The notes under the pieces were generated by a model, which saw only the letters and a list, made by a program, of their open reading frames with translations, had not been told where the DNA came from and ran no database searches. Below, one piece after another: positions 37,645-63,822 of a stretch of 64,000 bases of DNA; the stretch's first letter is position 1, and the number at the start of each line of letters is the position of its first letter. Made by a program: the position numbers and the translations under genes. The stretch covers positions 1 through 64,000 of the forward strand of contig CBDUXP010000005.1 in assembly GCA_965371225.1 (NCBI GenBank). Reading direction: 5' to 3'. Origin of the DNA: CBDUXP01 sp965371225 [NCBI: uncultured bacterium]. Lineage in GTDB: Bacteria > Abyssobacteria > SURF-5 > CBDUXP01.

Positions 37645-37695
37645 CCAAGAACTTGGCTCGCGGTCAGGGACGGGGAGCCGTGTCTGGGGCCGGTC

Positions 37696-49144: not shown

Positions 49145-49189
49145 GGGAAGTCGCGTTGACGGTGTGGCGCGCCCGTGGTACGGTCGCGC

Positions 49190-49195
49190 TATCCT
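49190..49195 (+). promoter_or_regulatory. TATCCT -10-like box for the helicase-nuclease operon
   Basis: TATCCT lies about 66 bases before the ATG at 49262, in a 117-base divergent gap shared with the YdjM-like gene. No -35 is apparent. Confidence 0.35.
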
Positions 49196-49261
49196 CGCCG
49201 AAGCCCGCATGGTAGCACGCCACCGGGACACCCGCGCCGCTGCGCCCGGCGCGCCTTCCCC

Positions 49262-52200
49262 ATGACCGCCTCCGACGTACCCACGCACCGGGTGTTGACG
49301 GGAGCGAGTGACGCGGGCAAAACACAGCACCTCATCGCGCGCCTCCTGGCGTTGCGCGAACACGCTCCGGACAGTTGGGCGCGGACGATGGTGTGGACTC
49401 GTTCCAGCATGGCCGCCCGCCGATTCGCGGAGCGGCTGGACGCGGAGGTCACGGCCAGCGGCACCGCCGCCGACGGGTATCGTCCCCCAACCATTACGAC
49501 GGCGCACGCCTGGGTCGTGGACGCGCACCGTCGCGGCCGCTTCGGGTTGCCCGCCCGCCAGATCTGGCCCCAGTGGATCGAACGGGAAGCCATTCGCGCC
49601 GCCTGCATCGTGCACGCGCCCCAGTGGCCCGACGGCGGCGACCGCCGCTCCGCCGACGTGCCCGCGTACCACAAGGAAATCCTCAGGTGGGCCGGCACGC
49701 TGGCGCTGAACGGGCTCGATCCGACCGCGCCGCTGCCGGACGCCGTCACCAACAGTCGGAACGGGCAGCGCGCGCGCAACCTGGCCGCGGTCCTGGCGGA
49801 TGTGGCCGCGCACAAGCAGCGCGCGAATGCACTCGGCGAACACGATCTGTTCCCCTCCTTCCTGGCCGCGTGCGCGGACAGCGCCGTGCTCGACGCGTGG
49901 CGCAGCGAAGTCGCGGTGTTGCTCATCGACGACGCACAGGACCTGCCCCTGGGCGCCGCCCGCTTGGCCGCGCACTGGGCGCGCGGCGGCGGCGAGCTGG
50001 TGGTCTGCATGGATCCCGACAGTCCCACCTCGCGGTTCCGCGGCGCGCTGCCAGACGCCATCTGGGAAACGTTCGCATCGGAACTCGACGTGCATCGGGA
50101 AGACGTGGCCGCCGAGCGCACCCCCACTGTCGGACGGCACGCCGCGGCCGTCCTGCGCGGGACGCCGCCTGCCGACGGCGGCGCCCCCGACTCAGACCGC
50201 ATCACCTGCGTCCGCGTGGCCGACGAAATCGAAGAAGCCTACGAATTGGCGCGGCGCGTGCGGCATGCCGTGTACGACAGCCGGGAAAACGACCACCCGC
50301 TGCGCTACGGCGACTGTGCGGTCATCGCGCAATCGTTGCAACCCACGGGGGCGTATCTGGCCGACGCGTTCGCGTTCTATGGCGTCCCCTTCGTGCGCCG
50401 CGTGGGCACCGCCTTGGTCAACGCGCCACTCGCCCGGTACGCATTGGCGTATCTGACCGCGCTGGCCGTTGGCACGCCGGACGCGCCCCCCGCCGAGTTA
50501 CTGGCGCACGGGTTCGCCGGACCCGGCCTGCCCGCCGCTGCCATGCACCGCCTGCTGCACCGATGGACCGGCGGCGAGGCCCGCGCGCAGCCACTGCTGG
50601 AGGTGGTGGGCACGCCAGCATTGCCACTGCCGGACGAGATCGACCTCGACGCCCTCCGCGCTTGGCACGCACGATGGCAGACGTTGCGCGCCGCGTGGCG
50701 CGACCGCGGCGCCCTCGCCCCGGTGCTGCGCACGCTCGCGCAGCAGCAGCTCCTGCCCGCACTCGCGCACCACGCCACGACGACCGCGATCGGCGAACGG
50801 CACCATCACGCGTTTCAGCACCTGGCGCACCTATTGCGCTTGGCGGACACCTTGGACCGGGACCGCCCGTCGCCCGATAGCCCGATCGCGATGTTGGAAC
50901 GGGCGGCGCGCGCGGAAGTAGCGGCCGAAGAGTGGGAGGCGAACGCCCTCGGGGTCCAGGCCGTGCATATCCTCACGCCGTATGCGGCGCGCGACTTCCC
51001 GTTCCGGTGGATCGCGCTCGCGGGATTTACCGCCGACCGCTGGCCCCCCCGTTTCTACAGCCACGTGTTGCACCTGGATCGCGCGACCGCGGCGTGGCTC
51101 GGGCGCGAGCCGCTGACCCTCTGGGAACCGGACGCCGCAACGCACGAGCGCGAATGGCGCGCCCGCGCCGCCGCCGTGTTCGAGCGCTGCGACGGCAAGA
51201 TCCTCCTGACCGTGCCGCGCGACGGCGCCGACGGGAATCCGCTGGATCCCACCGCATGGTTGGCGGAACTCGATCCGCTCGTGATTGAAGCCGCCCCCTT
51301 CGCAGACCCCCAGCGCGGGCTCACCCTCGCGCACGCCCTCACCCCCCCGGAAGCCGCCGCCGCGCTGGCGGCCATCGAGGCGGAAGACGATGCCATCACG
51401 AACGCGCGCGCGGTGCTCGGGCTGCCGCCTCCGTCCGCAAAACCGCTGGCACCTGCGCCGGTGCCCCTCGGCGACCGCGCCCTCAGCGCCAGCCTGTTGA
51501 ATACCTATCTGGATTGTCCGCGAAAATGTTTTTACACGCGGCTCCTTCGAGTCGAGGACCCGCCGGCGGACCTGGAAAGCGCGGGGCTGTTCGGCCGGAT
51601 CGTCCACACCGTCTTGGAGCGCCTCCACCGTTCGGGACGGTGGCCCTCATGGTCGGCGACAGACGAAGAGCCCCTGCGCCGGGCCGCGCACGATCTGCTG
51701 GCAGAGTTCTGGCGCGACCCCGAGATTCCTGCCGTGTTCCCCAATCCCATTCAGCGCACGTATGCGTATGGGCGGGCGCTGGCCATGCTGGCCGGGTACG
51801 CGCGCTGGCTGTGCGCGGAACACGCCGGGACCGAGGTCGTGCAGGTGGAGCGCGCCTTCGAGTTCACCCTGGCGGCGGCGCGGATTCGCGGGCGCATCGA
51901 TCGCGTGGACCGGCTCGCGGATGGGCGGCTGCGCGTCATCGATTACAAGACGGGCAGCACGGGCGTGGTGAAGGGCGGGCGGGCGCTCGCGCGGCGTTTC
52001 GTCAACGTGGACGGCAAGGAAGGCTGGACGCCGAAGGACTTGCAGATGTCCGTCTATGCCCTGGCGCACGCACACGACCCGAGCCTCCCCGGCCCTGCGG
52101 CCGAGACCGCGATCTGCTACCTGAAGGTTCCGGACGGCGAGGCACCGGCCTTTCCCATCGTGGCGTGGGGCGGAGCACCGGCGCCCGGCGGTAAGGAGCG

Positions 52201-52378
52201 CGTGGTCCTGACCGACACGCAGCTGGATCAGGCCCGCGCGTTGGTGGAGCAGACGGTGGCGCACATCAGGCGCGGCAGCTTTCCGCCACGGCCGTCCACG
52301 GTCGGCCTCTGCCGGCGCTGCCCCGCGTGGTCCGTGTGCACGGGCCCGCGATTCGATGAAGAGGACGCCGACTCGTGA
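49262..52378 (+). CDS. AddB-like helicase/nuclease subunit with Fe-S cluster
   Basis: A 1038-residue protein. An intact Walker A (GASDAGKT, residues 14-21) and a Walker B (LLIDDAQD, near 221) define a UvrD-like motor, though it is divergent and may be inactive as a helicase. The C-terminal part is a RecB-type PD-(D/E)XK nuclease: YLDCPRKC (near 750), IRGRIDRVDRL, then RVIDYKTGS (near 891). The cysteines of YLDCPRKC and the CRRCPAWSVC (CX2CX5C, near 1017) give the four ligands of the AddB 4Fe-4S cluster. It should load onto broken DNA ends with its partner. The stop overlaps the next gene's GTG by four bases. Confidence 0.9.
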   Translation: MTASDVPTHRVLTGASDAGKTQHLIARLLALREHAPDSWARTMVWTRSSMAARRFAERLDAEVTASGTAADGYRPPTITTAHAWVVDAHRRGRFGLPARQIWPQWIEREAIRAACIVHAPQWPDGGDRRSADVPAYHKEILRWAGTLALNGLDPTAPLPDAVTNSRNGQRARNLAAVLADVAAHKQRANALGEHDLFPSFLAACADSAVLDAWRSEVAVLLIDDAQDLPLGAARLAAHWARGGGELVVCMDPDSPTSRFRGALPDAIWETFASELDVHREDVAAERTPTVGRHAAAVLRGTPPADGGAPDSDRITCVRVADEIEEAYELARRVRHAVYDSRENDHPLRYGDCAVIAQSLQPTGAYLADAFAFYGVPFVRRVGTALVNAPLARYALAYLTALAVGTPDAPPAELLAHGFAGPGLPAAAMHRLLHRWTGGEARAQPLLEVVGTPALPLPDEIDLDALRAWHARWQTLRAAWRDRGALAPVLRTLAQQQLLPALAHHATTTAIGERHHHAFQHLAHLLRLADTLDRDRPSPDSPIAMLERAARAEVAAEEWEANALGVQAVHILTPYAARDFPFRWIALAGFTADRWPPRFYSHVLHLDRATAAWLGREPLTLWEPDAATHEREWRARAAAVFERCDGKILLTVPRDGADGNPLDPTAWLAELDPLVIEAAPFADPQRGLTLAHALTPPEAAAALAAIEAEDDAITNARAVLGLPPPSAKPLAPAPVPLGDRALSASLLNTYLDCPRKCFYTRLLRVEDPPADLESAGLFGRIVHTVLERLHRSGRWPSWSATDEEPLRRAAHDLLAEFWRDPEIPAVFPNPIQRTYAYGRALAMLAGYARWLCAEHAGTEVVQVERAFEFTLAAARIRGRIDRVDRLADGRLRVIDYKTGSTGVVKGGRALARRFVNVDGKEGWTPKDLQMSVYALAHAHDPSLPGPAAETAICYLKVPDGEAPAFPIVAWGGAPAPGGKERVVLTDTQLDQARALVEQTVAHIRRGSFPPRPSTVGLCRRCPAWSVCTGPRFDEEDADS

Positions 52379-55300
52379 TCGCCACGAACGCCGAACAGGC
52401 GCGGGCGGTCGACCAGCCGCACGACACACCGGTGGCGGTCATCGCCGGCGCGGGCACGGGCAAGACGCAATTGCTCACGGCCCGCTTCCTGCGCCTGGTG
52501 CGGGAGGTACGACTCGATCCCGAGCGCATCCTGTGTTTGACGTTTACGCGCAAAGCCGCGCAAGTAATGCGCAGCCGCATTCTCACGGGTCTGCGCGAGG
52601 CCGGATTGCCCGTGCCCCAGCCGCACGCGCTCTGGGTGCTCACGTTCGACGCCGCGGCGTGGCGCGTGCTGCGAGACGATCCCTTGCAAGCGGGCTTGGC
52701 CATGGATGTCCGTCTGCTAAACGAGGGGGAGACCGCCATGGCGGAGGAGCGCGTCTGGACTGCGGCGTGCGCGGACGACACCACGCCGTTTCGGGCGGTG
52801 CTGGGCGCGCTGTGGGAACGGCCGGCCGACATCAAGACCGCCGCGTTCGGCGCCTTGGACCGCTTGGCCAAAACCGGCGTGCCGCCCGCGGAGATTCCGC
52901 ACCACCTCGCCGCGCCCCGCGAGGCAGGGTATACCCGACTGCGGGACACGTTGGAGAACCGATTGGCCACCGGCCCCGCGCGCTTCAAGGGCCGCGCCGC
53001 CATGAGGCGGGCGGTGCCCAAGCTGGCGGCCCAGCAGGAGGCCGAGGCCGCCACCGCCGACTTCCTCCAGACCTTGGGAGAGCGGTATGCCACTGCGCGC
53101 GGCGCGGCGCACACGCTCACGTTCACCGACGTGCTGCAACGGGCCACCGAGGTGTGCACCCGCAGCGACCGGTGGCGCGACCGGTTCGATGCGGTGTTGG
53201 TGGACGAATGCCAGGATACGAACGCGGCGCAGTTTCGCTTCGTCCAAGCGCTGGCGGCGCCCGGCTACGGGAACGTCACCGTCGTGGGCGACCGGAAGCA
53301 GAGCATCTACTCGTTCCAGGGCGCGCGGCCGGAGAACACGGGCGAGCTGAAGGTGCCGCCCATCCCGCTGGTGCAGAACTACCGCAGCGTGGGGGAAATC
53401 CTGGACGCGGCGCACCACTTGATCCAGTCGCTCATGCCCGAAGAGCCCGCGCTGGAGCCGGCCGCGCGGGGGCACGCCGACGCGCCGCGGGTCTGGTTCA
53501 CGCGTCTGCACACGGAGGCAGCCGAAGCGCAATGGATTGCCGCCGAGATCGCGTCGCTGCATGACGCCGGCGTCCCGCTGGCGCAGATCATGATTCTCGT
53601 GCGCACACGCGGCCGCTTTGCGGCGCTGCAGACCGCCCTGCACGAACGCGGGCTGCCCCACGAAATCGTGGACAAGGCGGCCGCGTGGGACCTGCCGATC
53701 CTCAAGACCGCGGTCGCGCTGCTGCGGCTGGCGCTCGACCCACTGGATGACTTGGCGGCCGTGCGCGTGCTGCAAGAGCCGCCTGTGGAGTTATCCGACG
53801 CCGAGCTGGTCGAGTTGCTGCACGACCGCCAGGGCGCAAGCATCGTGGCGCATCTCCGCGCGTGCGCCGACCCGGCGCTCCGTGACCGCGCCGTACTGCT
53901 GGACGAGTTGGCCGAAGCTGCGACCACCATGCCCGGGGCGGAGTTCGTGTCCCACGCCATTCGCCGGTGGGGCTTGCTGGGGGCGGCGCTCGAACGGGAC
54001 GATGCCGTGCGCGCGGATTTCCGGGCGTTGGCGCAACTCTATGCGGCAGCGGCGCGCGCGTTCGCAGCCGTCCCCGCGCCCAGCCTTCGCGAGTTCGTGC
54101 AGGCGGTGCGCGACGATCGCGTGGCCATTCAGACGGACCAGGCGGGCGAGACCGAACCGCCGCGTGCCACCGTGCGCTTGAGCAACGTCCATCAGGTGAA
54201 GGGCCTCGAGTTTCCCATCGTCTTCATTGCAGGCCTCGGCGCGCGCCGCTTTCCCGACATCCAGACCGTCACCACGCACCTCACTTACGACGACCATCTG
54301 GGCTTCGCTCAACTGCGTTCCTGGGAGAACGATGCGATGGTTCGATGGTGCGTGGACGGTGGTAGCGCGTTCAGAACGGACCTACGCGAACGGTGGCGCG
54401 CGCGGAAGATCGCGGAGGAGCAGCGGCTGCTGTATGTGGCCATGACGCGGGCGCAGGAACGGCTGTACCTGACTACGAGTACGGCCCGGCCGAAACCCGA
54501 ACGCCTCGGCGAGCCGCGGTACTTCGTTGAGCGGTTGGAAGAGTGGATCGCGGACGGCGCGCCGGGGACGCAGTACCTCAGCCCGGACGGGCATGCGCCC
54601 GCGCCGCTGCCGCCGGAGGTCGCGGCCATCACCGGCGAGATGGCGGCGGCTCCACCCCCGCCGGCGCCCGTGGACCCGGCCGCGCTCGCAGCCCAAGCGG
54701 CTGCCGCGAAAGACCGCATCGACTGGCGCGCGACACCGGTGGGCACGGCGCAGGTGGTGACGCTCAGCTTTACCCAACTGTCGGCGTATCTGGCGTGCCC
54801 GCGGTTGCACGAATACCGCTACGTGCGGCGCGTGCCCGCGTTCGACGGCCGCGTGGTGGAGTCGGATGAGACGCCCGGATACGGCGACGCCGGCCGGTCC
54901 GCCGCGGCGAAGGGGCGGCTGGTGCATCGCACGCTGGAACTGTTCCATACGCCGGGGGGCGGCGCGCGCGGGGACGTGCGCGCGGCGCTGGAGATCGCCG
55001 CCGCGGAAGCGCCGGACGCGACCGCGCAGGATCGGTCCGACGCGGAGGCGCTCGTGACCCGCTACGCGGGGTGGGCCCTGTCCCGTGCGCCGGTGCAGGA
55101 GTGCGAGCCGGATTTTGTCGTGCCCATTTCGGGTGCCGCAGGAGGGCTCGGCGTGCGCGTGCGGGGCGCGATCGATCGGATCGACCGGGCGGACGATGGG
55201 GTGGCGATCTGGGATTACAAGACGGGGAACCCGGATCGCGCCGCCCTGACGGTGAAGTATGCGACGCAGGTGCGGTTGTACGCGTACGCGGCGGAGCGGG

Positions 55301-55551
55301 CGCTGGGGCTCGGTCCCGTGCGGCGGGCCGGGCTGATCGCGCTGGAGGCGGAGTCGGACGCGGAGGCTATCGTTGAGATCGACATCGCCCCCGACGACAT
55401 CGAGGATGCGTTGGACAAGGTACGCACGGCGGCTCGGCACATCGCCGACGGAGTGTTCACCGTGGACAAGGCGGGCGCGCACGCCAAGCGGCCGTGCGAC
55501 TATTGCGAGTACCGGGGGTGGTGTGGCGACCGGCGCGAGGCGGAGGCCTAG
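52375..55551 (+). CDS. AddA/AdnAB-like UvrD helicase with C-terminal Fe-S nuclease
   Basis: A 1058-residue protein with a full superfamily-1 motor: Walker A GAGTGKT (residues 25-31), motif II LVDECQD (near 276), QNYRS, VHQVKGLEF and VAMTRAQERLYL. A RecB-family nuclease ends it: YLACPRLHEY (near 807), then AIWDYKTGNP (near 945), and CDYCEYRGWC (CX2CX5C, near 1041). The four cysteines suggest a 4Fe-4S cluster, which is normal for AddB but not for Bacillus AddA. Together with the preceding gene it should form the heterodimeric end-resection machine for recombinational repair. The start is a GTG overlapping the previous stop. It ends 4 bases inside the YvyF-like gene on the other strand. Confidence 0.92.
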   Translation: MIATNAEQARAVDQPHDTPVAVIAGAGTGKTQLLTARFLRLVREVRLDPERILCLTFTRKAAQVMRSRILTGLREAGLPVPQPHALWVLTFDAAAWRVLRDDPLQAGLAMDVRLLNEGETAMAEERVWTAACADDTTPFRAVLGALWERPADIKTAAFGALDRLAKTGVPPAEIPHHLAAPREAGYTRLRDTLENRLATGPARFKGRAAMRRAVPKLAAQQEAEAATADFLQTLGERYATARGAAHTLTFTDVLQRATEVCTRSDRWRDRFDAVLVDECQDTNAAQFRFVQALAAPGYGNVTVVGDRKQSIYSFQGARPENTGELKVPPIPLVQNYRSVGEILDAAHHLIQSLMPEEPALEPAARGHADAPRVWFTRLHTEAAEAQWIAAEIASLHDAGVPLAQIMILVRTRGRFAALQTALHERGLPHEIVDKAAAWDLPILKTAVALLRLALDPLDDLAAVRVLQEPPVELSDAELVELLHDRQGASIVAHLRACADPALRDRAVLLDELAEAATTMPGAEFVSHAIRRWGLLGAALERDDAVRADFRALAQLYAAAARAFAAVPAPSLREFVQAVRDDRVAIQTDQAGETEPPRATVRLSNVHQVKGLEFPIVFIAGLGARRFPDIQTVTTHLTYDDHLGFAQLRSWENDAMVRWCVDGGSAFRTDLRERWRARKIAEEQRLLYVAMTRAQERLYLTTSTARPKPERLGEPRYFVERLEEWIADGAPGTQYLSPDGHAPAPLPPEVAAITGEMAAAPPPPAPVDPAALAAQAAAAKDRIDWRATPVGTAQVVTLSFTQLSAYLACPRLHEYRYVRRVPAFDGRVVESDETPGYGDAGRSAAAKGRLVHRTLELFHTPGGGARGDVRAALEIAAAEAPDATAQDRSDAEALVTRYAGWALSRAPVQECEPDFVVPISGAAGGLGVRVRGAIDRIDRADDGVAIWDYKTGNPDRAALTVKYATQVRLYAYAAERALGLGPVRRAGLIALEAESDAEAIVEIDIAPDDIEDALDKVRTAARHIADGVFTVDKAGAHAKRPCDYCEYRGWCGDRREAEA

Positions 55552-56006
55552 CCCCGGCCCGGCATCGCGCGCCGGTAATGCATCCCCCGGCGCTGTTCTT
55601 CGGGGGCGCTGGGCTCCTCGGCTTCGGGCGTGGGCGCTGGCGCGCCCTTCTCCCGCGGCGTCTCGCCCATCATCCGCCGCGCCTCGGCTACCTCGTTCGC
55701 CAACTCTTCCCGGCACTTATCGCAGAAGGTGCCACCATCGAGATAGATGCCACAGCGCCGGCATTGCAGCTCGCCGGGCACCACCTGCAGCGCCAGGCGT
55801 TTTTGGCGCAGCCAATGGACGATGAGGTGCTGACTCACTCCGGTGGCCTCGGCGATACGCGGAATCGAGCGCTCGCGGGTCTCGCGAATGTGCTCGCAGA
55901 CAAGGTGGAAGGCGTCTTCCTCTTCCTGGATGCAATCGGGACAGCGGCGGCCGGACCCGTGCCGGTAAAAGAGCAGGCCGCAGTCGTGGCAGTTGGTCAG
56001 TTGCAT
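55548..56006 (-). CDS. YvyF-like double zinc-ribbon/HTH protein, copy 1
   Basis: A 152-residue protein of the YvyF (flagellar operon protein) type. Two zinc-ribbons flank a MerR-like helix-turn-helix: CHDC (Cys6, Cys9) with CPDC (Cys22, Cys25), then the HTH (about 47-70, RSIPRIAEATGVSQHLIVHW), then CRRC (Cys82, Cys85) with CDKC (Cys95, Cys98). A Pro/Glu tail follows. In Bacillus, yvyF lies beside flgM and flgK and its role is unknown; a regulatory function is only proposed. The ATG at 56006 follows GAAGGGGAGA. It is the last of three tandem copies; copy 2 is 23 bases upstream. It overlaps the end of the helicase gene by 4 bases. Confidence 0.85.
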   Translation of the reverse strand: MQLTNCHDCGLLFYRHGSGRRCPDCIQEEEDAFHLVCEHIRETRERSIPRIAEATGVSQHLIVHWLRQKRLALQVVPGELQCRRCGIYLDGGTFCDKCREELANEVAEARRMMGETPREKGAPAPTPEAEEPSAPEEQRRGMHYRRAMPGRG

Positions 56007-56029
56007 CGCCCGTCTCTCCCCTTCGCGCG

Positions 56030-56458
56030 CTACCGGGGACTGTTGTGCATCCCATCAGGAGTCGCCCGCGACGCCGGGGCATCGGTCCCCAGCTGCCGGG
56101 GTGACGGTGCCTGCATGCCCGCACGCTGGCGCGCGATCTGATCGGCGATTTCCTTTCGGCAGCGCTCGCACAGATCCGCGCCGCCTGCGGGCTGGCCACA
56201 CCGCTTGCACCCGTCTTCCGGCCGCTCGCTGATCTCGACCTCCATGTCGAGCTTCCCTTCCTCCACCCACTTCAAGATCTTCCCGCGGTCCACTCCGGTC
56301 TCCTCCGCCAAGTCCACGATGAAGCGCACTTCATGGCTCCGGATGTACTCGCGCACCAGGTCGAACTCTTCCTGTTCCTGCTCCCGACAGGTAAGACATG
56401 TGCGGTCCCGTGTCCGGTTGAACAGCTTTCCGCACTTCTGGCAGTTAGCCAATGACAT
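56030..56458 (-). CDS. YvyF-like double zinc-ribbon/HTH protein, copy 2
   Basis: A 142-residue paralogue of its neighbours: CQKC and CLTC form the first ribbon, the HTH segment is FIVDLAEETGVDRGKILKWV (about 46-66), and CKRCG and CERC form the second ribbon; a Pro/Ala tail follows. Relative to copy 1 the ribbons and HTH spacing are conserved while the tails differ, which is what domain-only selection would give. AGAGGAGAGC is well placed before the ATG at 56458. It sits between copies 1 and 3 with 23 and 32 base gaps and is surely cotranscribed. Confidence 0.85.
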   Translation of the reverse strand: MSLANCQKCGKLFNRTRDRTCLTCREQEQEEFDLVREYIRSHEVRFIVDLAEETGVDRGKILKWVEEGKLDMEVEISERPEDGCKRCGQPAGGADLCERCRKEIADQIARQRAGMQAPSPRQLGTDAPASRATPDGMHNSPR

Positions 56459-56490
56459 GGTTTGCTCTCCTCTCGGACCGCCTCGCGCGT

Positions 56491-56925
56491 CTAACCCGCG
56501 TGCCCATGAGACTGGCCACCCGTGGTGCGACTCCGCCGGTCTGTCGCGATGGATGCGCGGGGGGGCGGCGTCTCTTCTTGGGCTTCGGCCGCCACGGTGT
56601 GCACCTGCTGCCGCACGTCAATCGCGCAGCGCTGGCAGTGTGCGCCGACCGTAGCGACGGCGTTGCAGCGGACGCAGAGGCGGGGTCGGGCCCCGCCGGC
56701 CTGGATCGCGGCCGCATGGTCCTGCCCCTTCATGAAACTGAGCACGAACCCGCGCGGGACGCCCGTCGCCACCACCACTTGCGCCACATCGCGCGTATCG
56801 TGAAAGCGCAAGAAATCTTCGATCCGTCGCGCATAGGCCGCGGCTTTGCTTTCGCATTCAGGACACAGTTCTTCCTCCCCGACACGGTTGAAGACCTTCG
56901 TACAACGCGTACACTTCGTCAGCAT
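56491..56925 (-). CDS. YvyF-like double zinc-ribbon/HTH protein, copy 3
   Basis: A 144-residue paralogue and first gene of the triplet. CTRC and CPEC form the first ribbon, a more divergent HTH segment is near DVAQVVVATGVPRGFVLSFM, and CVRC and CQRC form the second ribbon; the tail is Thr/Arg/Gly-rich. The ATG at 56925 is set by family alignment; the open frame continues to 57102, but that part has shadow composition. A GGAGG is about 14 bases upstream. The promoter lies at about 57157-57165. This copy is the most diverged of the three. Confidence 0.82.
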   Translation of the reverse strand: MLTKCTRCTKVFNRVGEEELCPECESKAAAYARRIEDFLRFHDTRDVAQVVVATGVPRGFVLSFMKGQDHAAAIQAGGARPRLCVRCNAVATVGAHCQRCAIDVRQQVHTVAAEAQEETPPPRASIATDRRSRTTGGQSHGHAG

Positions 56926-57138
56926 GTTCCTGGCACCGCCTCCCAGCGGCACGGCCCGACACCCGCGACAGAGTCTTGCCCGCGAGCTGCGCGCGCGCAC
57001 CACTGGCGACCTGCCACCGGGCTCTCCCCGCCGCGCCGCCTGCGAGTGGCGCTCTGCGGAAAGCGTCCCGGTCGCGTCCCATGGTGATCCGTCTTGGGAC
57101 ATGTCCCGCTCGATCCATCCATGGGCGACCGCAATACT

Positions 57139-57166
57139 GCTATATATGCTAGTCTTAGTATAGCAT
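57139..57166 (-). promoter_or_regulatory. extended -10 promoter with inverted repeats for the YvyF-like triplet
   Basis: Read on the minus strand, TGCTATACT (57157-57165) is an extended -10. ATGCTA (57146-57151) and TAGCAT (57161-57166) form a perfect 6-bp inverted repeat overlapping it, and GCTATA (57139-57144) pairs with TATAGC (57159-57164). The region is A+T-rich and looks like a regulated promoter. The leader to 56925 is about 225 bases. Confidence 0.5.
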
Positions 57167-57260
57167 TTACAGCAGAATTTGTTGGGTCATCCGCACCTTC
57201 GGGGATGTGTTTCCCCTCTCACCGAGCCCGCCGACGTGGTCCATCCAGGGAAGGTATGTC

Positions 57261-57287
57261 GTAACCAACTAGATTTATTGAGGTTAC
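57261..57287. repeat. inverted repeat in the gap before the glycerate-kinase stop
   Basis: GTAACC (57261-57266) and GGTTAC (57282-57287) can pair around 15 bases of A+T-rich sequence. Together with the promoter at 57139-57166 this lies in a gene-free stretch of 414 bases (56926-57339). A weak GGGGA/TCCCC hairpin is near 57202. It could be an operator or terminator; neither is proved. Confidence 0.3.
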
Positions 57288-57339
57288 AACTCATACTGAG
57301 GCAGGGCCCCTCGAAGCAGTGGCCTCGTCCCCCGGCAGA

Positions 57340-58740
57340 TCAGGCGATGAGGACGATGCGCACGTCCATGACGTTGGTGCCTGTTGGCCCCGTGCGGACC
57401 AGGTCCCCGAGCGCCTCGAACCACGGGTAGGCGTCGTGTCCGGCCAGCGGGGCCGCGGCAGCAGGAAGGCCGAGCGCAGCCGCGCGGCGCAGAGTTCGGT
57501 CGTCCCCCACCGCCCCGGCGGCGTCCGTCGGCCCGTCCGTGCCGTCCGTCCCCACGCAGGCCACGGCGACGGGTCGGTGCGCCGGGCCAAGCGCGTCGAG
57601 GAACGCGAGGGTGAACTCTTGCGCGCGCCCGCCGCGGCCCCGGGAGCGTCCCAGGGTCACCACGGTTTCGCCGCCGGAGAGGAGCGCCAGCGGCGGGGTA
57701 CCCGGTCGGCCCGTGGTACACACCTCCCGCGCCAGGGCGGCGTGCAGGGCGGCCGTCTCGCGCGTTTCGCCGCCGAGCGTGGTGGACAGCACCAGGGGAG
57801 GAAACCCGGCGGCGCGCGCAGCGTCGGCCGCAGCGGTCAGGGCGACGTCGTTGTTGGCAATGACCGTCCACCGGTGGCGCCGAAAGCCCGGGGTGTCCCG
57901 CGCGGGGGTGTCTATCAGCTTTCCGGCGCGGCCGCGAGTGAGGTATGCGCGCACGCGCGGGGGCGCGCCGGTCCACAGCCCGCGTCGCTGGAGAACCGCG
58001 ACGGCGTCAGCGAACGTGGTGTCATCAGGCGCGCTGGGGCCGGAGCCGATGGTGGCCAGATCGTCGCCCATGACATCGGACACGGCCAACGTCCACAGGT
58101 GAGCGCCGGCGCATGCCTGCGCCAAGCGGCCGCCCTTGATCGCGGAGAGGTGCTTGCGCACGGTGTTGATCTCGGCAATCGGCGCGCCGGCCCGCAGCAA
58201 CTCCGCCGTGGTGCGCCGCTTGTCCGTCAGGGTGAGGCCAGGCGCCGGTGCGCAACACACCGCGGAACTCCCGCCGCTGATCGCGACCCAGACGAGATCG
58301 CCCGGCTGCACGCGCTCGCGCACGTAGCGCAACACGGCTTCGGCGCCGCGCACGCTGGCGGCGTCCGGCAGCGGATGCCCGCCCGCGCGCATGTCCAGCC
58401 CGCGCACGGGGCGGGCGTGCCCGTGCTTCGTGACCAGGACGCCGCCGGCCAGCGGCAGTCCGCCCAAGGCGACGAGCGGCTCGGCCATCGCCGACGCGGC
58501 CTTGCCCAGTGCCAGGACGTGGGCGCGCGCGCGTTTGGGGAGCACCAGCGTCCGTCCCCCCACGTGCACGGTGCGGCCGTCGATGGAGACGGCCTCGCGG
58601 ATCGCGCGCGCGGGGTCGGCCGCGGCGATGGCGGCGGAGTAGATGCGTTTCAGGATGCGCCGCAGGCCGGCGCGGCGCGGGGGGAGCGGGCCAGGCGATC
58701 GCCGGCCTGAGGGACGGGTACCCCGGGTGCCCCGCGGCAC
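57340..58740 (-). CDS. glycerate 2-kinase (MOFRL/GckA family)
   Basis: A 466-residue kinase of the class II glycerate kinase family, which uses ATP to make 2-phosphoglycerate. The N-terminal domain is visible from RILKRIYSAAIAAADPARAI, with VLALGKAASAMAEPL, SGGSSAVCC, and KHLSAIKGGRLA; the C-terminal MOFRL domain has LLSGGETVVTLG, GRGGRAQEF and GTDGTDGPTDAAGAV, which carry the conserved catalytic Asp and Arg residues. The start is a GTG directly after the stop of the FlgG-like gene, giving an extra Arg/Pro-rich stretch of about 25 residues; a later CTG start is possible. It lies between flagella-associated genes without obvious functional link. Confidence 0.92.
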   Translation of the reverse strand: MPRGTRGTRPSGRRSPGPLPPRRAGLRRILKRIYSAAIAAADPARAIREAVSIDGRTVHVGGRTLVLPKRARAHVLALGKAASAMAEPLVALGGLPLAGGVLVTKHGHARPVRGLDMRAGGHPLPDAASVRGAEAVLRYVRERVQPGDLVWVAISGGSSAVCCAPAPGLTLTDKRRTTAELLRAGAPIAEINTVRKHLSAIKGGRLAQACAGAHLWTLAVSDVMGDDLATIGSGPSAPDDTTFADAVAVLQRRGLWTGAPPRVRAYLTRGRAGKLIDTPARDTPGFRRHRWTVIANNDVALTAAADAARAAGFPPLVLSTTLGGETRETAALHAALAREVCTTGRPGTPPLALLSGGETVVTLGRSRGRGGRAQEFTLAFLDALGPAHRPVAVACVGTDGTDGPTDAAGAVGDDRTLRRAAALGLPAAAAPLAGHDAYPWFEALGDLVRTGPTGTNVMDVRIVLIA

Positions 58741-59457
58741 TTACCGCAGGAGATCGAGCAGCGTGCCGATCACTTCGTCTTGCCGCCGGGCCACGGCCAC
58801 ATTCGCCTGGACGCCACGGAGTGCGACCAGTTCGGCTGTCAATTCGCGGGCGAGTTCAACGTTGCTCCCCTCGACGAAACCGCCAAGTGCGGCATCGCCC
58901 GTCCCGCCGCTGAGCACGCCGATCTGTGGCGCGCCCGATGCGGCGGTGGCGGCAAATGCGTTGGCCCCCACGTCGAGCAAGCCAGCCGGGTTCGTGAACC
59001 GCGCTACCTGCAATTGGCCGAAGGTCTGCGTGCCCGCCGCACCGGGGGGGATGCCGCTCACGGTGCCTTCCAGCCCAATGTGGAGGGCGGTGGTGCCCGG
59101 CGGCACCTGGATGCCCGGCTCGACGAGGCGCCCGTCCGGCGTCACGAGCTGCCCCTGGGCGTTGAGGCCGAGGACGCCGGCGCGAGTGAACGATTGGCCG
59201 CCGCCGCCATCGCGCAGGACGAGAAATGCGTCCCCCTGGATCGCAACCGTGAGGGGGTCACCCGTGCTGAAGGGTGCACCCGGGGCGGTCTGCACGGTGG
59301 CTGCACCGGGCGCGACGCCGGCGCGGTTCGGCAAGCTGGCCTGGCTGCCCCGCCGGGACCGGAACCCTGGCGTCAACACGTTAGCCACGTTGTTGGAAAT
59401 GGTGGTCAGCCGTTGGATGCCAGCTTGAATGCCGGTGAGGGAGATCCGAATGCCCAT
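58741..59457 (-). CDS. flagellar hook/basal-body rod-family protein (FlgG-like)
   Basis: A 238-residue protein of the rod/hook family. The N-terminus (MGIRISLTGIQAGIQRLTTI, then the SNNVANVLTPGF motif) and the C-terminus (VEGSNVELARELTAELVALR, QDEVIGTLLDLL) are the helical D0 parts that coil together in the axial structure; the middle has the FlgG-type beta-strands (FSTGDPLTVAIQGDAFLVLR). Length is close to but below typical FlgG/FlgF (about 250-265). There is no signal peptide, as expected for flagellar type III export. Its own TATACT promoter is 43 bases upstream. No other flagellar gene is in the window besides the YvyF-like triplet, so it is oddly isolated. Confidence 0.88.
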   Translation of the reverse strand: MGIRISLTGIQAGIQRLTTISNNVANVLTPGFRSRRGSQASLPNRAGVAPGAATVQTAPGAPFSTGDPLTVAIQGDAFLVLRDGGGGQSFTRAGVLGLNAQGQLVTPDGRLVEPGIQVPPGTTALHIGLEGTVSGIPPGAAGTQTFGQLQVARFTNPAGLLDVGANAFAATAASGAPQIGVLSGGTGDAALGGFVEGSNVELARELTAELVALRGVQANVAVARRQDEVIGTLLDLLR

Positions 59458-59499
59458 GGGGTCCGCGTTCCGGCGCGGGCGAAGCGTGCCGTAAGGTCT

Positions 59500-59529
59500 A
59501 GTATACCGCTATTTCTGCCAGGAGCACAA
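59500..59529 (-). promoter_or_regulatory. promoter for the FlgG-like gene
   Basis: On the minus strand TTGTGC (59524-59529), an 18-base spacer and TATACT (59500-59505), 43 bases before the ATG at 59457. Confidence 0.45.
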
Positions 59530-59645
59530 CGTAGCGATGTGCGCGGGGGGCTGTGATCTTGAACGCAGGCCCCAGCGGCGCGCGGCTGCGTCGCAACCCG
59601 CCCCGGCACGGGTGGTTACACCTAGCGGGGGGCGTGGGTCGGGTC

Positions 59646-59651
59646 TACAAT
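59646..59651 (+). promoter_or_regulatory. TACAAT -10 box for the ferredoxin-cyaY operon
   Basis: TACAAT, 5 of 6 to the consensus, lies 67 bases before the ferredoxin ATG. A -35 at the correct distance is not evident. Confidence 0.4.
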
Positions 59652-59717
59652 GACGGTTGACGCGGCGCGCGCAGGTACCGAGACCGGTGGGTGGCGCGCG
59701 GGCGGTACGAGAGGATT

Positions 59718-60134
59718 ATGGCAGGCGAGAATCCCTACATAGCCCCGGTCGCGGTGGAGAAGCCCGTGCAGAAGTACACCATCACGTTCCTGCCCATGAA
59801 CGTGACCGTGGAGGTCGACCCCGCGCACGTGCCCTATGGGCGCACGGGCCGGCCCGGGTCGATCCTGGACATTGCGCTCGCGCACGGGATCGATCTGGAG
59901 CACAGTTGCGGCGGCGTGTGTGCGTGCTCCACGTGCCACATCATCGTGCGGGAGGGGTTCGACACGCTGCCCGAGGCGGGCGATGAGGAAGAGGACATGC
60001 TCGACAGCGCGCCCAGCCTGGAGCGGTGGAGCCGGCTGGCGTGCCAGAGCGTGCCGCCCGGGACGCGGAACCTCATCGTGGAAGTGCCGCAGTGGAACCG
60101 GAATGCGGTGCAAGAGACGCCGCACGAGGCGTAG
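59718..60134 (+). CDS. fdx: ISC-type 2Fe-2S ferredoxin
   Basis: A 138-residue ferredoxin. The cluster ligands are in HSCGGVCACSTC, where C-x5-C-x2-C matches the E. coli Fdx spacing, and the fourth is in RLACQ. The downstream DMLDSAPSLERWSR element is typical of the vertebrate/adrenodoxin-like subgroup used in Fe-S cluster assembly, where it donates electrons to the IscS/IscU complex. An N-terminal extension of about 20 residues (MAGENPYIAPVAVEKPVQKY) precedes the fold. The ATG at 59718 has GAGAGGA before it; an upstream GTG at 59691 is less likely. The cyaY gene follows by 12 bases. Confidence 0.92.
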   Translation: MAGENPYIAPVAVEKPVQKYTITFLPMNVTVEVDPAHVPYGRTGRPGSILDIALAHGIDLEHSCGGVCACSTCHIIVREGFDTLPEAGDEEEDMLDSAPSLERWSRLACQSVPPGTRNLIVEVPQWNRNAVQETPHEA

Positions 60135-60146: not shown

Positions 60147-60470
60147 GTGGAAGACAAACAGTACCGCGCGATCGCGGGTGCCTTGCTGCGCGACCTGTGT
60201 GCGTACTTTGATGAGTGGGATCCGGACGAGGTGGAAGCGGAGCTGGTGCCGGGGGCGCTGACCCTGATCACGGCGGACACGAGCACGTACATCGTCAGCG
60301 AACAGGGGGCCCACCAGCAGATGTGGTTGGCGACGCCGGAGCGGGGCCGGCGGTACAACTACGACGCCGAGGGACGGGGCTGGGTCGATACGAAGGACGG
60401 CAGCACGCTGCAGGAGGTGCTCGCCGCGGAGCTGAGCGCCAAGCTTGGCAAACCGGTGGTGTTCGGCTAG
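60147..60470 (+). CDS. cyaY: CyaY/frataxin-like iron-binding protein
   Basis: A 107-residue frataxin-fold protein, the usual length. The acidic N-terminal helix (ALLRDLCAYFDEWDPDEVEA), the strands LTLITADTSTYIVSEQG, the QQMWLATPERGRRYNY element with its conserved Trp, and the C-terminal helix (EVLAAELSAKLG) are all recognisable. CyaY binds iron through the acidic ridge and regulates IscS-dependent Fe-S cluster synthesis. The start is a GTG at 60147, 12 bases after the ferredoxin stop, so the two are cotranscribed. The last four bases overlap the end of the convergent kinase gene. No isc or suf genes are in the window. Confidence 0.9.
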   Translation: MEDKQYRAIAGALLRDLCAYFDEWDPDEVEAELVPGALTLITADTSTYIVSEQGAHQQMWLATPERGRRYNYDAEGRGWVDTKDGSTLQEVLAAELSAKLGKPVVFG

Positions 60471-63400
60471 GCCTCGAGCACCTCGCGCATTTTCTCGACC
60501 AGCGCGGCCGGCCGGTAGGGTTTCTGGAGGAACCCGGCGGGCGGGCCGTCCCCGAACCCCTTGGAGGCATCCCGCTCGTCGTACCCGGTGGTGAGAATGA
60601 CGCGGACGTCAGGATGCAGCCGCCGCAGTTCGCGAAACGTTTCGACGCCGCCCATGTTCGGCATGTTCATGTCGAGTAACACGGCGCACAGGTCGCCGTT
60701 GCTGCGTTCAAACAGATCCAAGGCCTCGCACCCATCGGCCGCGGTCACGACCGTGAAGCCGCTGCGCTCCAGAATGCGCTGGGCCACCCGCCGCACCATT
60801 TCCTCGTCGTCCACCACGAGGATCGTGCCGGACCCGGTCCAGCGCACTTCCGGTGTGTGCTCTTCCCGGCGGCGAGCCGCGCGGCGCCGGGAGACGGGGA
60901 GCAACACGCTGAAGGTGGTGCCCTCACCGGGCGCGCTCTGCACCACCACCGCGCCACTGTGCGCGCGCACGATCCCCAGCACGCTCGCCAAGCCCAGCCC
61001 CCGGCCGGTGAATTTCGTGGTGTAGAAGGGATCGAAAATTTTCGCGCGGGTGGCCGCGTCCATGCCGCACCCCGTGTCCATCACGTCCAGGGCGACGTAG
61101 GCCCCTTCGGGCAAATCATTCGCGAGGTACGTGTCCAGGAGATCCGCCCGGCTGAGATGCAGCACGCTGGTGCGCAGGGTGATCGACCCCACGCGGTCCT
61201 CCAGCGCGTCGGACGCGTTCGTCAGCAGGTTCATGAGCACCTGGCGTATCTGGGTCGCGTCTCCATCCACCAGGGGGAGTTCGGGCGTCAGGTCGTAGTG
61301 CACCGTCGCCGTCTTCGAAATCACCGTATCGAGCAAGTGGCTCATTTCCCGTGCGAGGGTGTTGATGTGGAGCGGCTCGATGACAAAGCTGCCCTTGCCC
61401 GAGTACGCGAGCAACTGCTTCGTGAGGTCGGCGGCGCGGAGGGCGGCGGTCTCCATCGCCTCGACGGACTCCCGGACCGGAGAATCGGGTGAAAGGTCCA
61501 TGAGCGCCACGCCCGCATTGCCGAGCACGCCCATGAGGAGGTTGTTGAAATCGTGCGCGATCCCGCTCGCCAGGATCCCCAGGCTCTCCAGCTTTTGGGT
61601 GTGCTGCACCTGCCGTTCCATGTCGCGGCGTTCCTCTTCCGCACGCTTCAGCTCGGTCAGATCCTTCATGGCGCACACGAAATGGCGGGGTTCGCCCGTG
61701 GCCGTGCGCACCAGGGACATGGTGGTCAGCACCGGGACGGGCTCGCCGACCTTGCAGGGCATCACGCATTCCAGACTGTACGTGACGGTGTCGTCGCTGA
61801 GCGCACGCGCCATACCGGCGCGGTGGAACTCCCGGTCCTCTTCGTGCGCCACCTCCTCGATCGTCCGCGCAAGCAATTCGGCCTCGGGGTACCCCAGCAA
61901 TTCCGAGAGGTACGGATTCACCCGGAGGAAGCGCCCCTCCAGGTCCAGGTGCGCGATCCCGACGCCGGCGTGGGCGAACGTGATGCGCAATTGTTCCTCG
62001 CTCTCGCGCAGGGCGGTTTCGGCGCGACGCCGTTGCAACGCGTTGACCAAAATTTCAGCCGCGATCTCGAGGAGCACGATCGTATCCTCGGTCCACTGCA
62101 CCTCCTCCCGGACGCAGGCGAAGCCCACATGGCCGAAGAGCGACCCGCCGAGCAGCATCGGCACGAACGCGCCGGACTTGGTTCCCGCCGTCTCGAAGAT
62201 CAGGCGTTCCGCCGTCGCTTCCTGCGGCAGGTCGTCCCGCCGGGAAAACACCATCGATTCCCCATGCCGGAGCAAGCGTTCCATCCACGGGAAGTCCGCC
62301 AGCAGCACCCCCTGCAACTGGTCCCGGTGGGACGGGATATCCTGCCCGCGCCACTGATAGGTCAGGTCACAGGTGGCATCGTCGGCGCGGACCTCGAAGA
62401 CGGTGCACCGATCCGCCCCGACGAACGTGCCGATCGCCTCCAGCGCGTACTCGATGCCCGCTTCGAGGTCGTCCAGGGTCCGGTTGACCATGTCCGCGGC
62501 GATGCGGGTGATCAGACGGTCCAAGTCCACCCGGCGTTGCAAGTCGCGCTCCGCCTGCTTGCGGTCGCGGATGTCCTCAGCCATGACCAGCAACCCGTTC
62601 CGCTCCCCAGCCGTATCCTGCAACAGGGAGAGGTTGACGCGCACGTCCATGGGCAGTCCCCATGAGGAGCTGAGGCTCAGCTCCACCGCTTGGGGACTCC
62701 CGCTCGCGGTGCACCGCTGCACAGCCTCCAGGAACCCTGGCTGGGCGGCGAGTGCGCTCTCGCCTGGAGACATCTGCAGCATTGCGTCCCGATCGGGGGC
62801 GCCGATGAGGCGGAGATGCGCGTCATTGACCGTCTGCACGCGACCTGCGCTATCCATCGCCACGATGCCGAGGGGCGCATGGTCAATGAGGTGGCGGTAA
62901 CGCGCTTCGCTCTCGGCCAGCCGGTCCAGGCCGTCGCGGAGCCGGGCTTGCCGGCGCAGGAGCGCGTGCGTACCACCAGCCAGAAAGATCGAAAACAGGA
63001 GACCGATGCCCAACAACGGGTCCGACAGCCAGGCGATCTCCTGAACGGGGGTTAAGGTCAACGTCCACGCGCGGCCAAGCACCGAAAACTGCTGCGTGCC
63101 CGCCAGCGTGGCGGCGCCCGCCGGTGCCGGGTCGCCCAGGCCGTAGACCAGGCGCTGGCCATCGTGTACCTGCACGGAAAAGCAGTCCCCGATGCCGGCG
63201 TGCAGACAGCTCTCGACCAGGGTATCGAAGTGGAAAACGGGCTGCAGGTATCCCAAGACCCGGCCATCGCGCAGCACCGGCGCTAGAGCCGCGATCCGAT
63301 ACCCGCCATCTTCCAACGCGACGGGACGCGTCAGCCGCATGGCCGGGGAGATTTCGACACCCGTGTCCAGGGGGGCCGGCGCTTCGAGGCGCAGTTCGCG

Positions 63401-63757
63401 CGGCGCGGCCTGGCCACCCGCCTCTGCCGGGACTGCCCAGCGGGTCGTCCCGTCGGCGTCTTTCCAGTGGATCGCTTGCAGACTGGGGACTTGTGCGAGA
63501 ACTGGCAAGCCACGGCGCGTGAAATCGGCCTGGGTCGTGATGTGGCCCTCAGCCCATTCGAGGCGCAGGTCCTCGACCAACGCCAACCGCATCGCAATAT
63601 GCTCCTCGAGCCGTGCCGCAGCCTGCGCCGCAGTCACCTGGGTGTGGGCGCGGAGTTCGCGTAACTCCCAGCCGGCCTCGGCCCGCCACAGCAGGAGGCA
63701 CAAGCTGGTCAGGACCACGAACACGCCTACCGCGATCGCGGCAGGCCGGAACTTCAT
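60467..63757 (-). CDS. hybrid histidine kinase, CHASE - PAS - GAF - PAS - HisKA - HATPase - REC
   Basis: A 1096-residue sensor. A first helix (about 7-27) and a second (about 243-263) bound a periplasmic domain with the CHASE-like element SLQAIHWKDADGTTRWAVP. A PAS domain (about 285-400), a GAF domain (about 430-590) and a second PAS domain (about 600-720) follow. The kinase core has ASGIAHDFNNLLMGVLGNAG (His near 732), DTGCGMD and GRGLGLASVLGIVRAHSG. A receiver closes the protein (LLDMNMPNMGG, phosphoacceptor Asp near 1028; Lys in LQKPYRP). The HDFNN box places it with hybrid kinases whose own receiver is the first phosphate acceptor. It probably senses a small ligand outside the membrane. 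It is convergent with cyaY. Confidence 0.93.
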   Translation of the reverse strand: MKFRPAAIAVGVFVVLTSLCLLLWRAEAGWELRELRAHTQVTAAQAAARLEEHIAMRLALVEDLRLEWAEGHITTQADFTRRGLPVLAQVPSLQAIHWKDADGTTRWAVPAEAGGQAAPRELRLEAPAPLDTGVEISPAMRLTRPVALEDGGYRIAALAPVLRDGRVLGYLQPVFHFDTLVESCLHAGIGDCFSVQVHDGQRLVYGLGDPAPAGAATLAGTQQFSVLGRAWTLTLTPVQEIAWLSDPLLGIGLLFSIFLAGGTHALLRRQARLRDGLDRLAESEARYRHLIDHAPLGIVAMDSAGRVQTVNDAHLRLIGAPDRDAMLQMSPGESALAAQPGFLEAVQRCTASGSPQAVELSLSSSWGLPMDVRVNLSLLQDTAGERNGLLVMAEDIRDRKQAERDLQRRVDLDRLITRIAADMVNRTLDDLEAGIEYALEAIGTFVGADRCTVFEVRADDATCDLTYQWRGQDIPSHRDQLQGVLLADFPWMERLLRHGESMVFSRRDDLPQEATAERLIFETAGTKSGAFVPMLLGGSLFGHVGFACVREEVQWTEDTIVLLEIAAEILVNALQRRRAETALRESEEQLRITFAHAGVGIAHLDLEGRFLRVNPYLSELLGYPEAELLARTIEEVAHEEDREFHRAGMARALSDDTVTYSLECVMPCKVGEPVPVLTTMSLVRTATGEPRHFVCAMKDLTELKRAEEERRDMERQVQHTQKLESLGILASGIAHDFNNLLMGVLGNAGVALMDLSPDSPVRESVEAMETAALRAADLTKQLLAYSGKGSFVIEPLHINTLAREMSHLLDTVISKTATVHYDLTPELPLVDGDATQIRQVLMNLLTNASDALEDRVGSITLRTSVLHLSRADLLDTYLANDLPEGAYVALDVMDTGCGMDAATRAKIFDPFYTTKFTGRGLGLASVLGIVRAHSGAVVVQSAPGEGTTFSVLLPVSRRRAARRREEHTPEVRWTGSGTILVVDDEEMVRRVAQRILERSGFTVVTAADGCEALDLFERSNGDLCAVLLDMNMPNMGGVETFRELRRLHPDVRVILTTGYDERDASKGFGDGPPAGFLQKPYRPAALVEKMREVLEA

Positions 63758-63822
63758 GAGGTCATACCGTCGCTCACCACTCCACAGATAATACTGCTAG
63801 AATTGCTTATTGTACCATCTTT

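What the first reader, a model, noticed from the sequence alone, without database searches (positions are those of the whole stretch)
55548..56925. Tandem triplet of YvyF-like double zinc-ribbon/HTH proteins
YvyF is a single-copy flagellar-region protein of unknown function in Bacillus relatives. Here three diverged paralogues form an operon of their own with conserved ribbons and HTH but different tails, which suggests that each acts on a different target or DNA site. The HTH between two ribbons would fit a DNA-binding regulator.
Basis: partly seen in the sequence, partly recalled or inferred. Interest (0 to 1): 0.65.

Follow-up and report, generated by a model that had tools for sequence, protein, structure and literature searches.

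The report
Three tandem YvyF-like zinc-ribbon HTH proteins
Three side-by-side genes encode diverged relatives of YvyF, a little-studied protein of the Bacillus flagellar region, and the DNA in front of them carries a mirror-image element whose arm recurs in front of a neighbouring flagellar gene and a sensor-kinase gene, so a role as regulators can be tested directly.

Summary
Three adjacent minus-strand genes, C (56925-56491), B (56458-56030) and A (56006-55548), gaps 32 and 23 bp, have TIGR03826/YvyF as their only strong family match (E 7e-13, 1e-23, 2e-25). All eight zinc-ribbon cysteines are kept. Scores are below the curated cut-off and the ComF-YvyF-FlgM-FlgN setting is absent, so they are YvyF-like homologues, not YvyF equivalogs. 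One FlgE/F/G-type gene lies 1.8 kb upstream.

Models of A and C give ribbon, three-helix HTH, ribbon, disordered tail. The HTH half is negatively charged in A, B and 6 of 9 outside homologues, so DNA binding is possible but not shown.

New here: a 47-bp dyad (57133-57179, arms 16/19) upstream of C. Its C-proximal arm matches best, elsewhere in the window, just upstream of the hybrid kinase (15/19) and the FlgEFG-like gene (14/19), the next two minus-strand units; the other arm recovers only the kinase site. This suggests a small local regulon; that these proteins read the element is inference. No close relative was found, so the triplet's spread is unknown.

The parts
56491..56925 (-). Gene C, first of the operon, 144 aa: ribbon (C5,C8,C21,C24), helix, HTH, ribbon (C84,C87,C97,C100), tail; most diverged
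   Evidence: TIGR03826 7.4e-13; model, mean pLDDT 74.3
56030..56458 (-). Gene B, 142 aa, same architecture by alignment, acidic HTH half; not modelled
   Evidence: (TIGR03826 1e-23)
55548..56006 (-). Gene A, 152 aa, same architecture, best YvyF score; end overlaps the end of the convergent helicase gene by 4 bp
   Evidence: TIGR03826 2.4e-25; model, mean pLDDT 73.5
57133..57179 (.). 47-bp imperfect dyad (arms 57133-57151 and 57161-57179, 16/19 complementary, 9-nt centre), 207 nt upstream of the preferred start of C; each arm reads like TAGCA-N4-TAGCA, a direct repeat of 9-bp period; candidate operator/promoter of C-B-A
   Evidence: 0 of 300 local dinucleotide shuffles reach 16/19; best 14/19; RNA fold z -2.7, 2 of 200 shuffles fold as well
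59502..59520 (-). Site like the C-proximal arm, 14/19, ending 44 nt upstream of the FlgEFG-like gene; not recovered (under 13/19) with the other arm
63790..63808 (-). Site like the C-proximal arm, 15/19 (14/19 to the other arm), ending 32 nt upstream of the hybrid histidine kinase gene
58741..59457 (-). FlgE/F/G-family flagellar rod/hook-type protein, 238 aa, directly followed by glycerate kinase
   Evidence: TIGR03506 155.4 bits, cut-off 70.25; below the cut-offs for FlgF and FlgG proper
57340..58740 (-). Glycerate 2-kinase (DUF4147 + MOFRL), 414 bp upstream of C; probably co-transcribed with the FlgEFG-like gene (inferred from adjacency)
60467..63757 (-). Hybrid sensor histidine kinase (PAS, GAF, HisKA, HATPase, receiver)
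52375..55551 (+). Convergent neighbour: UvrD-type helicase with C-terminal PD-(D/E)XK nuclease (AddA-like); with 49175-52378 a likely AddAB/RecBCD-like pair; not judged part of the unit

Best explanation
The three genes form a short operon of tandemly duplicated, diverged YvyF-like proteins. Each has a zinc ribbon, an HTH segment, a second zinc ribbon and a tail (modelled for A and C). The most likely role is transcription control: the zinc ribbons hold a compact core and perhaps contact a partner such as RNA polymerase, while the HTH contributes to recognising a promoter element. The best candidate element is the TAGCA-N4-TAGCA site, doubled as a dyad upstream of the operon and present once upstream of the FlgEFG-like gene and once upstream of the hybrid kinase. 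Shown: the gene arrangement, homology, cysteines, predicted HTH geometry of A and C, the dyad and the related sites. Inferred: co-transcription, DNA or RNA-polymerase binding, that these proteins read that element, autoregulation, and a flagellar or motility output.
For: Homology. All eight cysteines invariant in the triplet and five outside homologues. Models of A and C: residues about 24-76 form a three-helix HTH; many rows of the second-look alignments are DNA-binding HTH proteins (A: IscR Z 5.0, rmsd 2.7 over 53, and TetR types; C: TrpR Z 5.4, rmsd 2.8 over 54, and TtgV Z 5.0, rmsd 1.5 over 47). Dyad: 0 of 300 local shuffles reach it, and it is one of two inverted repeats of that strength (arms 19, loop up to 20) in the 64 kb. 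The C-proximal arm has, apart from its own partner arm, two matches of 14/19 or more in the window; they end 32 and 44 nt upstream, on the sense strand, of the next two minus-strand units; in 1000 shuffles of the 41 upstream regions none gave two such scores. In B. subtilis yvyF lies in an operon with flgM (PMC8849057, passages).
Against: Structural matches are weak (Z 5.0 at best for A, 6.3 for C; no Foldseek hit at E below 0.001 for A) and other proteins are among them (top row for C is a phosphoglucose isomerase; MYST acetyltransferases and COP9 subunits recur). The HTH half is negatively charged in A, B and 6 of 9 outside homologues, and the turn and recognition helix carry -3 to +3. At the position that is R in nine outside homologues, C has D (R in A, K in B). 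The shared element could simply be a promoter class: -10-like TATTAT and TATACT overlap two of the three sites. The other arm of the dyad recovers the kinase site (14/19) but not the FlgEFG site. The dyad is 207 nt from the preferred start of C. No sigma-70 consensus match was found in 55400-57500. The site test was devised after the dyad was seen, within one 64-kb window; no second genome could be checked.
Confidence: 0.4

Rival explanations
1. Adaptor model: the HTH is a protein-binding module. YvyF-like proteins bind a partner protein (an anti-sigma/sigma pair, export component or RNA polymerase), and the three paralogues are three adaptors or one hetero-oligomer; they do not bind DNA themselves.
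For: Negatively charged HTH half in 8 of 12 family members; a ribbon-less HTH relative exists in Acetoanaerobium (118 aa, E 4.8e-6 to TIGR03826), so the HTH half can stand alone; ComF, FlgM and FlgN are the neighbours in four of nine outside homologues; tails of A and C are predicted disordered and tail charge is positive in 11 of 12 members.
Against: The dyad and the two related sites are left unexplained; many of the structural second-look rows are DNA-binding HTHs, although fold alone shows no function.
Confidence: 0.33
2. Flagellar assembly or structural role, as UniProt's note on YvyF (quoted in PMC6878767) proposes: the proteins assist the rod/hook part, here the neighbouring FlgEFG-like protein.
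For: FlgEFG-like gene 1.8 kb upstream in the same direction; four of nine outside homologues in the immediate ComF-YvyF-FlgM order; PMC6878767 passage.
Against: A double zinc-ribbon HTH protein with no signal peptide evident to the eye (no predictor was run); a homologue sits on a plasmid with no FlgM or FlgEFG match; a 3-fold tandem set fits badly with a structural part.
Confidence: 0.12
3. About the element, and compatible with any protein function above: it is an ordinary promoter class of this genome, and the triplet has nothing to do with reading it.
For: Two sites end 32 and 44 nt before starts and overlap -10-like hexamers; the C-B-A site ends 30 nt before the alternative ATG at 57102; a weaker copy (13/19) precedes the ketosynthase gene at 33676.
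Against: TAGCAGTATT is shared exactly by the C-B-A and kinase sites, which is more than a -10 box; the dyad form is not a promoter feature; 38 of 41 upstream regions score 10/19 or less.
Confidence: 0.35
4. Neutral tandem duplication: three redundant or decaying copies of one gene, with C on its way to loss of function.
For: C is the longest branch and its HTH segment is the least conserved.
Against: All eight cysteines and open frames kept in all three at 19-38% pairwise identity; coding-type GC pattern in all three.
Confidence: 0.1

Closest known systems
YvyF (TIGR03826 family flagellar region protein)
   Same: Nearly full-length match of ribbon-HTH-ribbon, eight cysteines in corresponding positions, similar length (outside homologues read here 124-141 aa, window 142-152 aa), best named family by far
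   Different: Scores 48.7-89.1 bits against a cut-off of 124.15; three tandem copies; no ComF, FlgM or FlgN found in the window; own residues in helix 1 region (R46 of A in all three against A/V/T in nine others; T/H/H at the position that is N in all nine others)
Two YVYF proteins of Paenibacillus polymyxa (PMC6878767, Table 3, passages seen)
   Same: More than one YvyF-type protein in one organism
   Different: No tandem operon is mentioned in the passages seen; sequences not seen here
Excisionase/MerR-type HTH (TIGR01764, PF12728 HTH_17)
   Same: HTH segment of B resembles the short form (E 0.054 and 0.18)
   Different: Below all thresholds; flanked by two zinc ribbons
Archaeal TFE and other ribbon plus HTH transcription proteins
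   Same: Combination of HTH and zinc ribbon; TFE appears as a weak profile hit (E 0.62)
   Different: Not significant

Membership tests
TIGR03826 (YvyF equivalog) | Nearly full-length alignment to the profile | tested here: met
   A 1-113 to 1-115, B 1-113 to 1-113, C 2-119 to 3-119 of 137 positions
TIGR03826 (YvyF equivalog) | Score above the curated cut-off of 124.15 bits | tested here: not met
   89.1, 83.9, 48.7 bits. Seven of nine outside records with a homologue also miss it, including Acetoanaerobium YvyF sitting between ComF and FlgM, so the cut-off is strict; still, the three are filed as YvyF-like, not as YvyF
TIGR03826 (YvyF equivalog) | Two ribbons, each with two CxxC pairs | tested here: met
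   Eight cysteines invariant in all three and five outside homologues
TIGR03826 (YvyF equivalog) | Place in the ComF-YvyF-FlgM-FlgN flagellar region | tested here: not met
   tblastn of ComF, FlgM, FlgN, FlgK, FlgL, FliW, CsrA, FliS, FlgJ-like and RecD-type/ComFA proteins from outside loci finds nothing convincing in the window (best E 0.28); only the FlgF/G queries hit, at 58744-59454
TIGR03826 (YvyF equivalog) | Restriction to flagellated Bacillota (recalled, not from a call) | tested here: inconclusive
   1 of 299 Pseudomonadota genomes matched, over 25 positions only; 1 of 14 control genomes, B. subtilis, at E 0.001 (at E 0.01 3 of 14, only B. subtilis over the cut-off); the window's own phylum was not established
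DNA-binding HTH regulator | Three-helix HTH geometry | tested here: met
   Predicted models of A and C, helices 23-43/48-55/59-67 and 22-41/47-54/58-74; structural second look Z 5.0 and 6.3 at best; B not modelled
DNA-binding HTH regulator | Basic DNA-facing surface | tested here: inconclusive
   Net charge of helix 1 to wing: A -2, B -9, C +3; surface map not computed
DNA-binding HTH regulator | Specific DNA binding | not testable with these tools
   needs an assay

The most novel reading that the evidence does not exclude
The triplet is a dedicated local regulator set, and the TAGCA-N4-TAGCA element is its binding site: used as a dyad for its own control and as a single site to control a flagellar rod-type gene and a hybrid kinase. 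In that case the YvyF-like family would gain a DNA target (none was seen in the passages read here), with three paralogues dividing or combining the work on one element. Odds lowered from 0.18 on checking, because the second dyad arm does not recover the FlgEFG site.
Probability: 0.16. Interest if true: 0.65.

Novelty: new variant of a known kind. Interest (0 to 1): 0.42.

Why it matters
YvyF sits in the flgM operon of Bacillus (PMC8849057, passages), but the passages I read (4 of the 13 papers that one search lists) give no tested function for it. A natural triplicate outside the comF-flgM setting, with a candidate cis element and two nearby candidate targets, turns 'unknown flagellar-region protein' into a concrete binding test.

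Tried and rejected
Relatives of the lineage: a genome-contig scan with B matched 34 stretches, none a relative; a second with the neighbouring AddA-like helicase kept the best 80 of 435 loci, all distant UvrD helicases (about 30% identity at best) from proteobacterial records. Viral-contig scans with the triplet alignment, A, a faecal-contig YvyF and a plasmid YvyF found no relative; the exact 19-nt arm has no match there. UvrC of the window is at best 42% identical over about 600 residues among 150 Pseudomonadota, 145 of which matched (up to 46% over shorter pieces), so the window is probably not from a sampled pseudomonadote; the phylum stays unknown.

Copy number by genome counts: only nine records with homologues could be searched; each has one full-length copy, and three have a second, short match.

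Phylogeny: 12 sequences, poorly resolved; C is a very long branch. The triplet as one clade is neither shown nor rejected (p-AU 0.54); A with B has support 66/91.

Solved-structure search by sequence: no significant relative (best E 0.011 over 17 positions). Foldseek for A: none at E below 0.001. A fold not listed is not thereby excluded.

Recalled sigma-28 and sigma-54 promoter patterns upstream of C: best 9/12 and 7/11, reached by 14.5% and 100% of 200 shuffles; sigma-70 8/12, 52%. Terminator scan: one site, within C on the other strand. Rfam on 54000-60000: nothing. Defence link: no PADLOC match for the three; the helicase matches GajB-type models as a UvrD helicase. PHROGs: only weak matches, E 0.0005 or worse.

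I first took three faecal contigs (L087-L089) as YvyF without flagella. That was wrong for L087, whose record has FlgEFG genes about 7 kb away; L088 and L089 lie on records of 10.5 and 8.2 kb, too short to say. A fifth faecal record (MT838602) matched only over its first 57 query residues at most and was not read.
Full report
What is there. Three minus-strand ORFs, in the order C (56925-56491), B (56458-56030), A (56006-55548), lie 32 and 23 bp apart. Purine-rich (Shine-Dalgarno-like) stretches precede their starts, clearest for A and B, and codon-position GC is of coding type. Their only strong named match is TIGR03826/YvyF, at 2.4e-25 (A), 1e-23 (B) and 7.4e-13 (C), all below the curated cut-off of 124.15 bits. 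Pfam gives only sub-threshold matches, mostly to zinc-ribbon families. A profile of eight family members, the three included, finds these three and no fourth copy in six frames of the window.

Anatomy. All eight cysteines are invariant across the triplet and five outside homologues. AlphaFold2 models from three-sequence alignments reach mean pLDDT 73.5 (A) and 74.3 (C). Ten-residue means are 77-92 over the first ribbon, helix and HTH (residues 1-70), 73-85 over the second ribbon, and 42-52 in the tails beyond residue 120. The order is ribbon, long helix, HTH, short linker or wing, ribbon, helix, tail. Second-look structural alignments put residues about 24-76 on HTH domains, with Z at best 5.0 for A and 6.3 for C and unrelated proteins among them; the top row for C is a phosphoglucose isomerase. 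These values are in the range the tool calls common. Identity by segment (A-B, A-C, B-C): N-ribbon 12/25, 11/25, 10/24; HTH 9/26, 5/26, 7/26; C-ribbon 8/19, 6/19, 7/19; tail 8/27, 1/29, 1/25. So the ribbons are the most constant part, the HTH of C is eroded, and only C's tail is really different.

Homologues elsewhere. tblastn in plasmid records gives five Bacillota homologues, and in the phage collection four faecal contigs that carry bacterial genes (a fifth faecal record matched only in part and was not read). Context by annotation: Priestia, DEAD/DEAH helicase, ComF, YvyF, FlgM, FlgN, FlgK. By my reading of ORFs: Acetoanaerobium, RecD-type helicase, ComF, YvyF, FlgM, FlgN, FlgK; Paenibacillus, the same with a ComFA-type helicase; faecal contig L090, two FlgF/G genes, a FlgJ-like gene, RecD-type helicase, ComF, YvyF, FlgM, FlgN. 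By profile, FlgM is found in 5 of 9 records and FlgEFG in 6 of 9. The Aneurinibacillus plasmid (721,710 bp) has the YvyF-like gene but neither; the two short faecal records L088 and L089 also show neither, but are too short to tell. Each of the nine records has one full-length copy; Acetoanaerobium has in addition a ribbon-less HTH relative of 118 aa. In Pseudomonadota 1 of 299 genomes matched, over 25 positions only. Table 3 of PMC6878767 (passages seen) lists two YVYF proteins in P. polymyxa, so multiple copies are not unheard of.

Origin of the triplet. A and B are nearest each other (38%). Two columns near the end of helix 1 set the triplet apart: R46 (A's numbering) in all three against A/V/T in nine others, and T/H/H where the nine others have N. 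This favours one local expansion. The tree neither shows nor rejects it.

Surroundings. Upstream on the same strand lie a FlgE/F/G-family gene (59457-58741; TIGR03506 155.4 bits, cut-off 70.25) and, directly after it, a glycerate 2-kinase gene (58740-57340), then a 414-bp gap before C. Farther up is a hybrid histidine kinase gene (63757-60467), with a ferredoxin and a frataxin-like gene between on the other strand. Downstream, an AddA-like helicase-nuclease gene converges and overlaps A by 4 bp. None of the other ORFs that I put through family scans gave a flagellar match, and no ComF, FlgM or FlgN is seen by tblastn.

A candidate control element. The gap before C holds a 47-bp imperfect dyad, arms 57133-57151 and 57161-57179, 16/19 complementary around 9 nt. 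None of 300 local dinucleotide shuffles reaches 16/19 (best 14), and one other repeat of that strength exists in the window. Each arm reads like TAGCA-N4-TAGCA, a direct repeat of 9-bp period. With the C-proximal arm as query, the window has, besides the partner arm, two matches of 14/19 or better: 63790-63808 (15/19, ends 32 nt before the kinase start) and 59502-59520 (14/19, ends 44 nt before the FlgEFG-like start), both on the sense strand. In 1000 shuffles of 41 upstream regions none gave two such scores. So the last three minus-strand units of the window, taking FlgEFG-like plus glycerate kinase as one, share the element. Cautions: with the other arm as query only the kinase site reaches 14/19 and the FlgEFG site is not among those at 13 or more; the dyad lies 207 nt before the preferred start of C; the test was devised after seeing the dyad and uses a simple shuffle; a weaker copy (13/19) stands before a ketosynthase gene; and -10-like hexamers overlap two of the sites, so a shared promoter class is a live alternative.

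Mechanism. I commit to transcription control as the most likely role (0.4), with the protein-adaptor reading close behind (0.33); the rival about the element is not exclusive with these, so the odds do not sum to one. For control: HTH geometry, the dyad and related sites, and the family's place beside flgM. Against direct DNA binding: the HTH half has net charge -2 (A), -9 (B), +3 (C) and is negative in 8 of 12 members; the turn and recognition helix carry -3 to +3. A combined picture, in which A, B and C act as a complex with one DNA-contacting member (C is the only one of the three with a positive HTH half), is possible and untested.

Literature. A full-text search finds the string YvyF in 13 papers and TIGR03826 in none. 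I read passages of four (PMC6878767, PMC5540618, PMC8849057, PMC11899143): one gives the B. [quoted passage not shown] No functional study was seen in these passages or in the listings; papers outside the open library are not held.

Limits. No whole genome is held for the window, the phylum is unknown, and no close relative was found, so the spread of the triplet and conservation of the element are open.

Noticed in passing
window 35671-38562 (-): UvrC-type ORF of 963 aa; in most listed matches the homology starts near residue 350, so there is an N-terminal fusion or a start chosen too early. One genome (G002) aligns from residue 103.
   Followed up: no
window 49175-55551 (+): Adjacent pair of UvrD/PD-(D/E)XK proteins, likely an AddAB-like recombination enzyme.
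   Followed up: no
window 8951-18926: Cluster with SpoIIM/RDD, DUF58/vWA, MoxR-type AAA, DUF4350 and DUF4129 genes.
   Followed up: no
window 33697-33715 (-): Weaker copy (13/19) of the dyad arm just upstream of the ketosynthase gene at 33676.
   Followed up: partly
L106 1184-1540 (-), Acetoanaerobium noterae NZ_CP154629.1: 118-aa ORF with the YvyF helix-HTH part but no zinc ribbons (E 4.8e-6 to TIGR03826).
   Followed up: partly
L087-L090 (MT835502, MT836418, MT836955, MT837500): Records labelled 'Bacteriophage sp.' carry, by my reading, bacterial housekeeping or flagellar genes (RecD-type helicase, ComF, GlmM, FlgF/G) and look like bacterial contigs.
   Followed up: partly
L084 (NZ_CP116888.1) 5001-5396: YvyF-like gene on an Aneurinibacillus plasmid record with no FlgM or FlgEFG match, near a ComEC/Rec2 gene; the annotation starts it 90 bp later and would cut off the first ribbon.
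   Followed up: partly
C-terminal ends of A, B and outside homologues: Several tails end in an aromatic residue or methionine with basic residues (GMHYRR, GMHNSPR, RMRYL, KMRFL, RYFNKKR); possible short binding motif.
   Followed up: no
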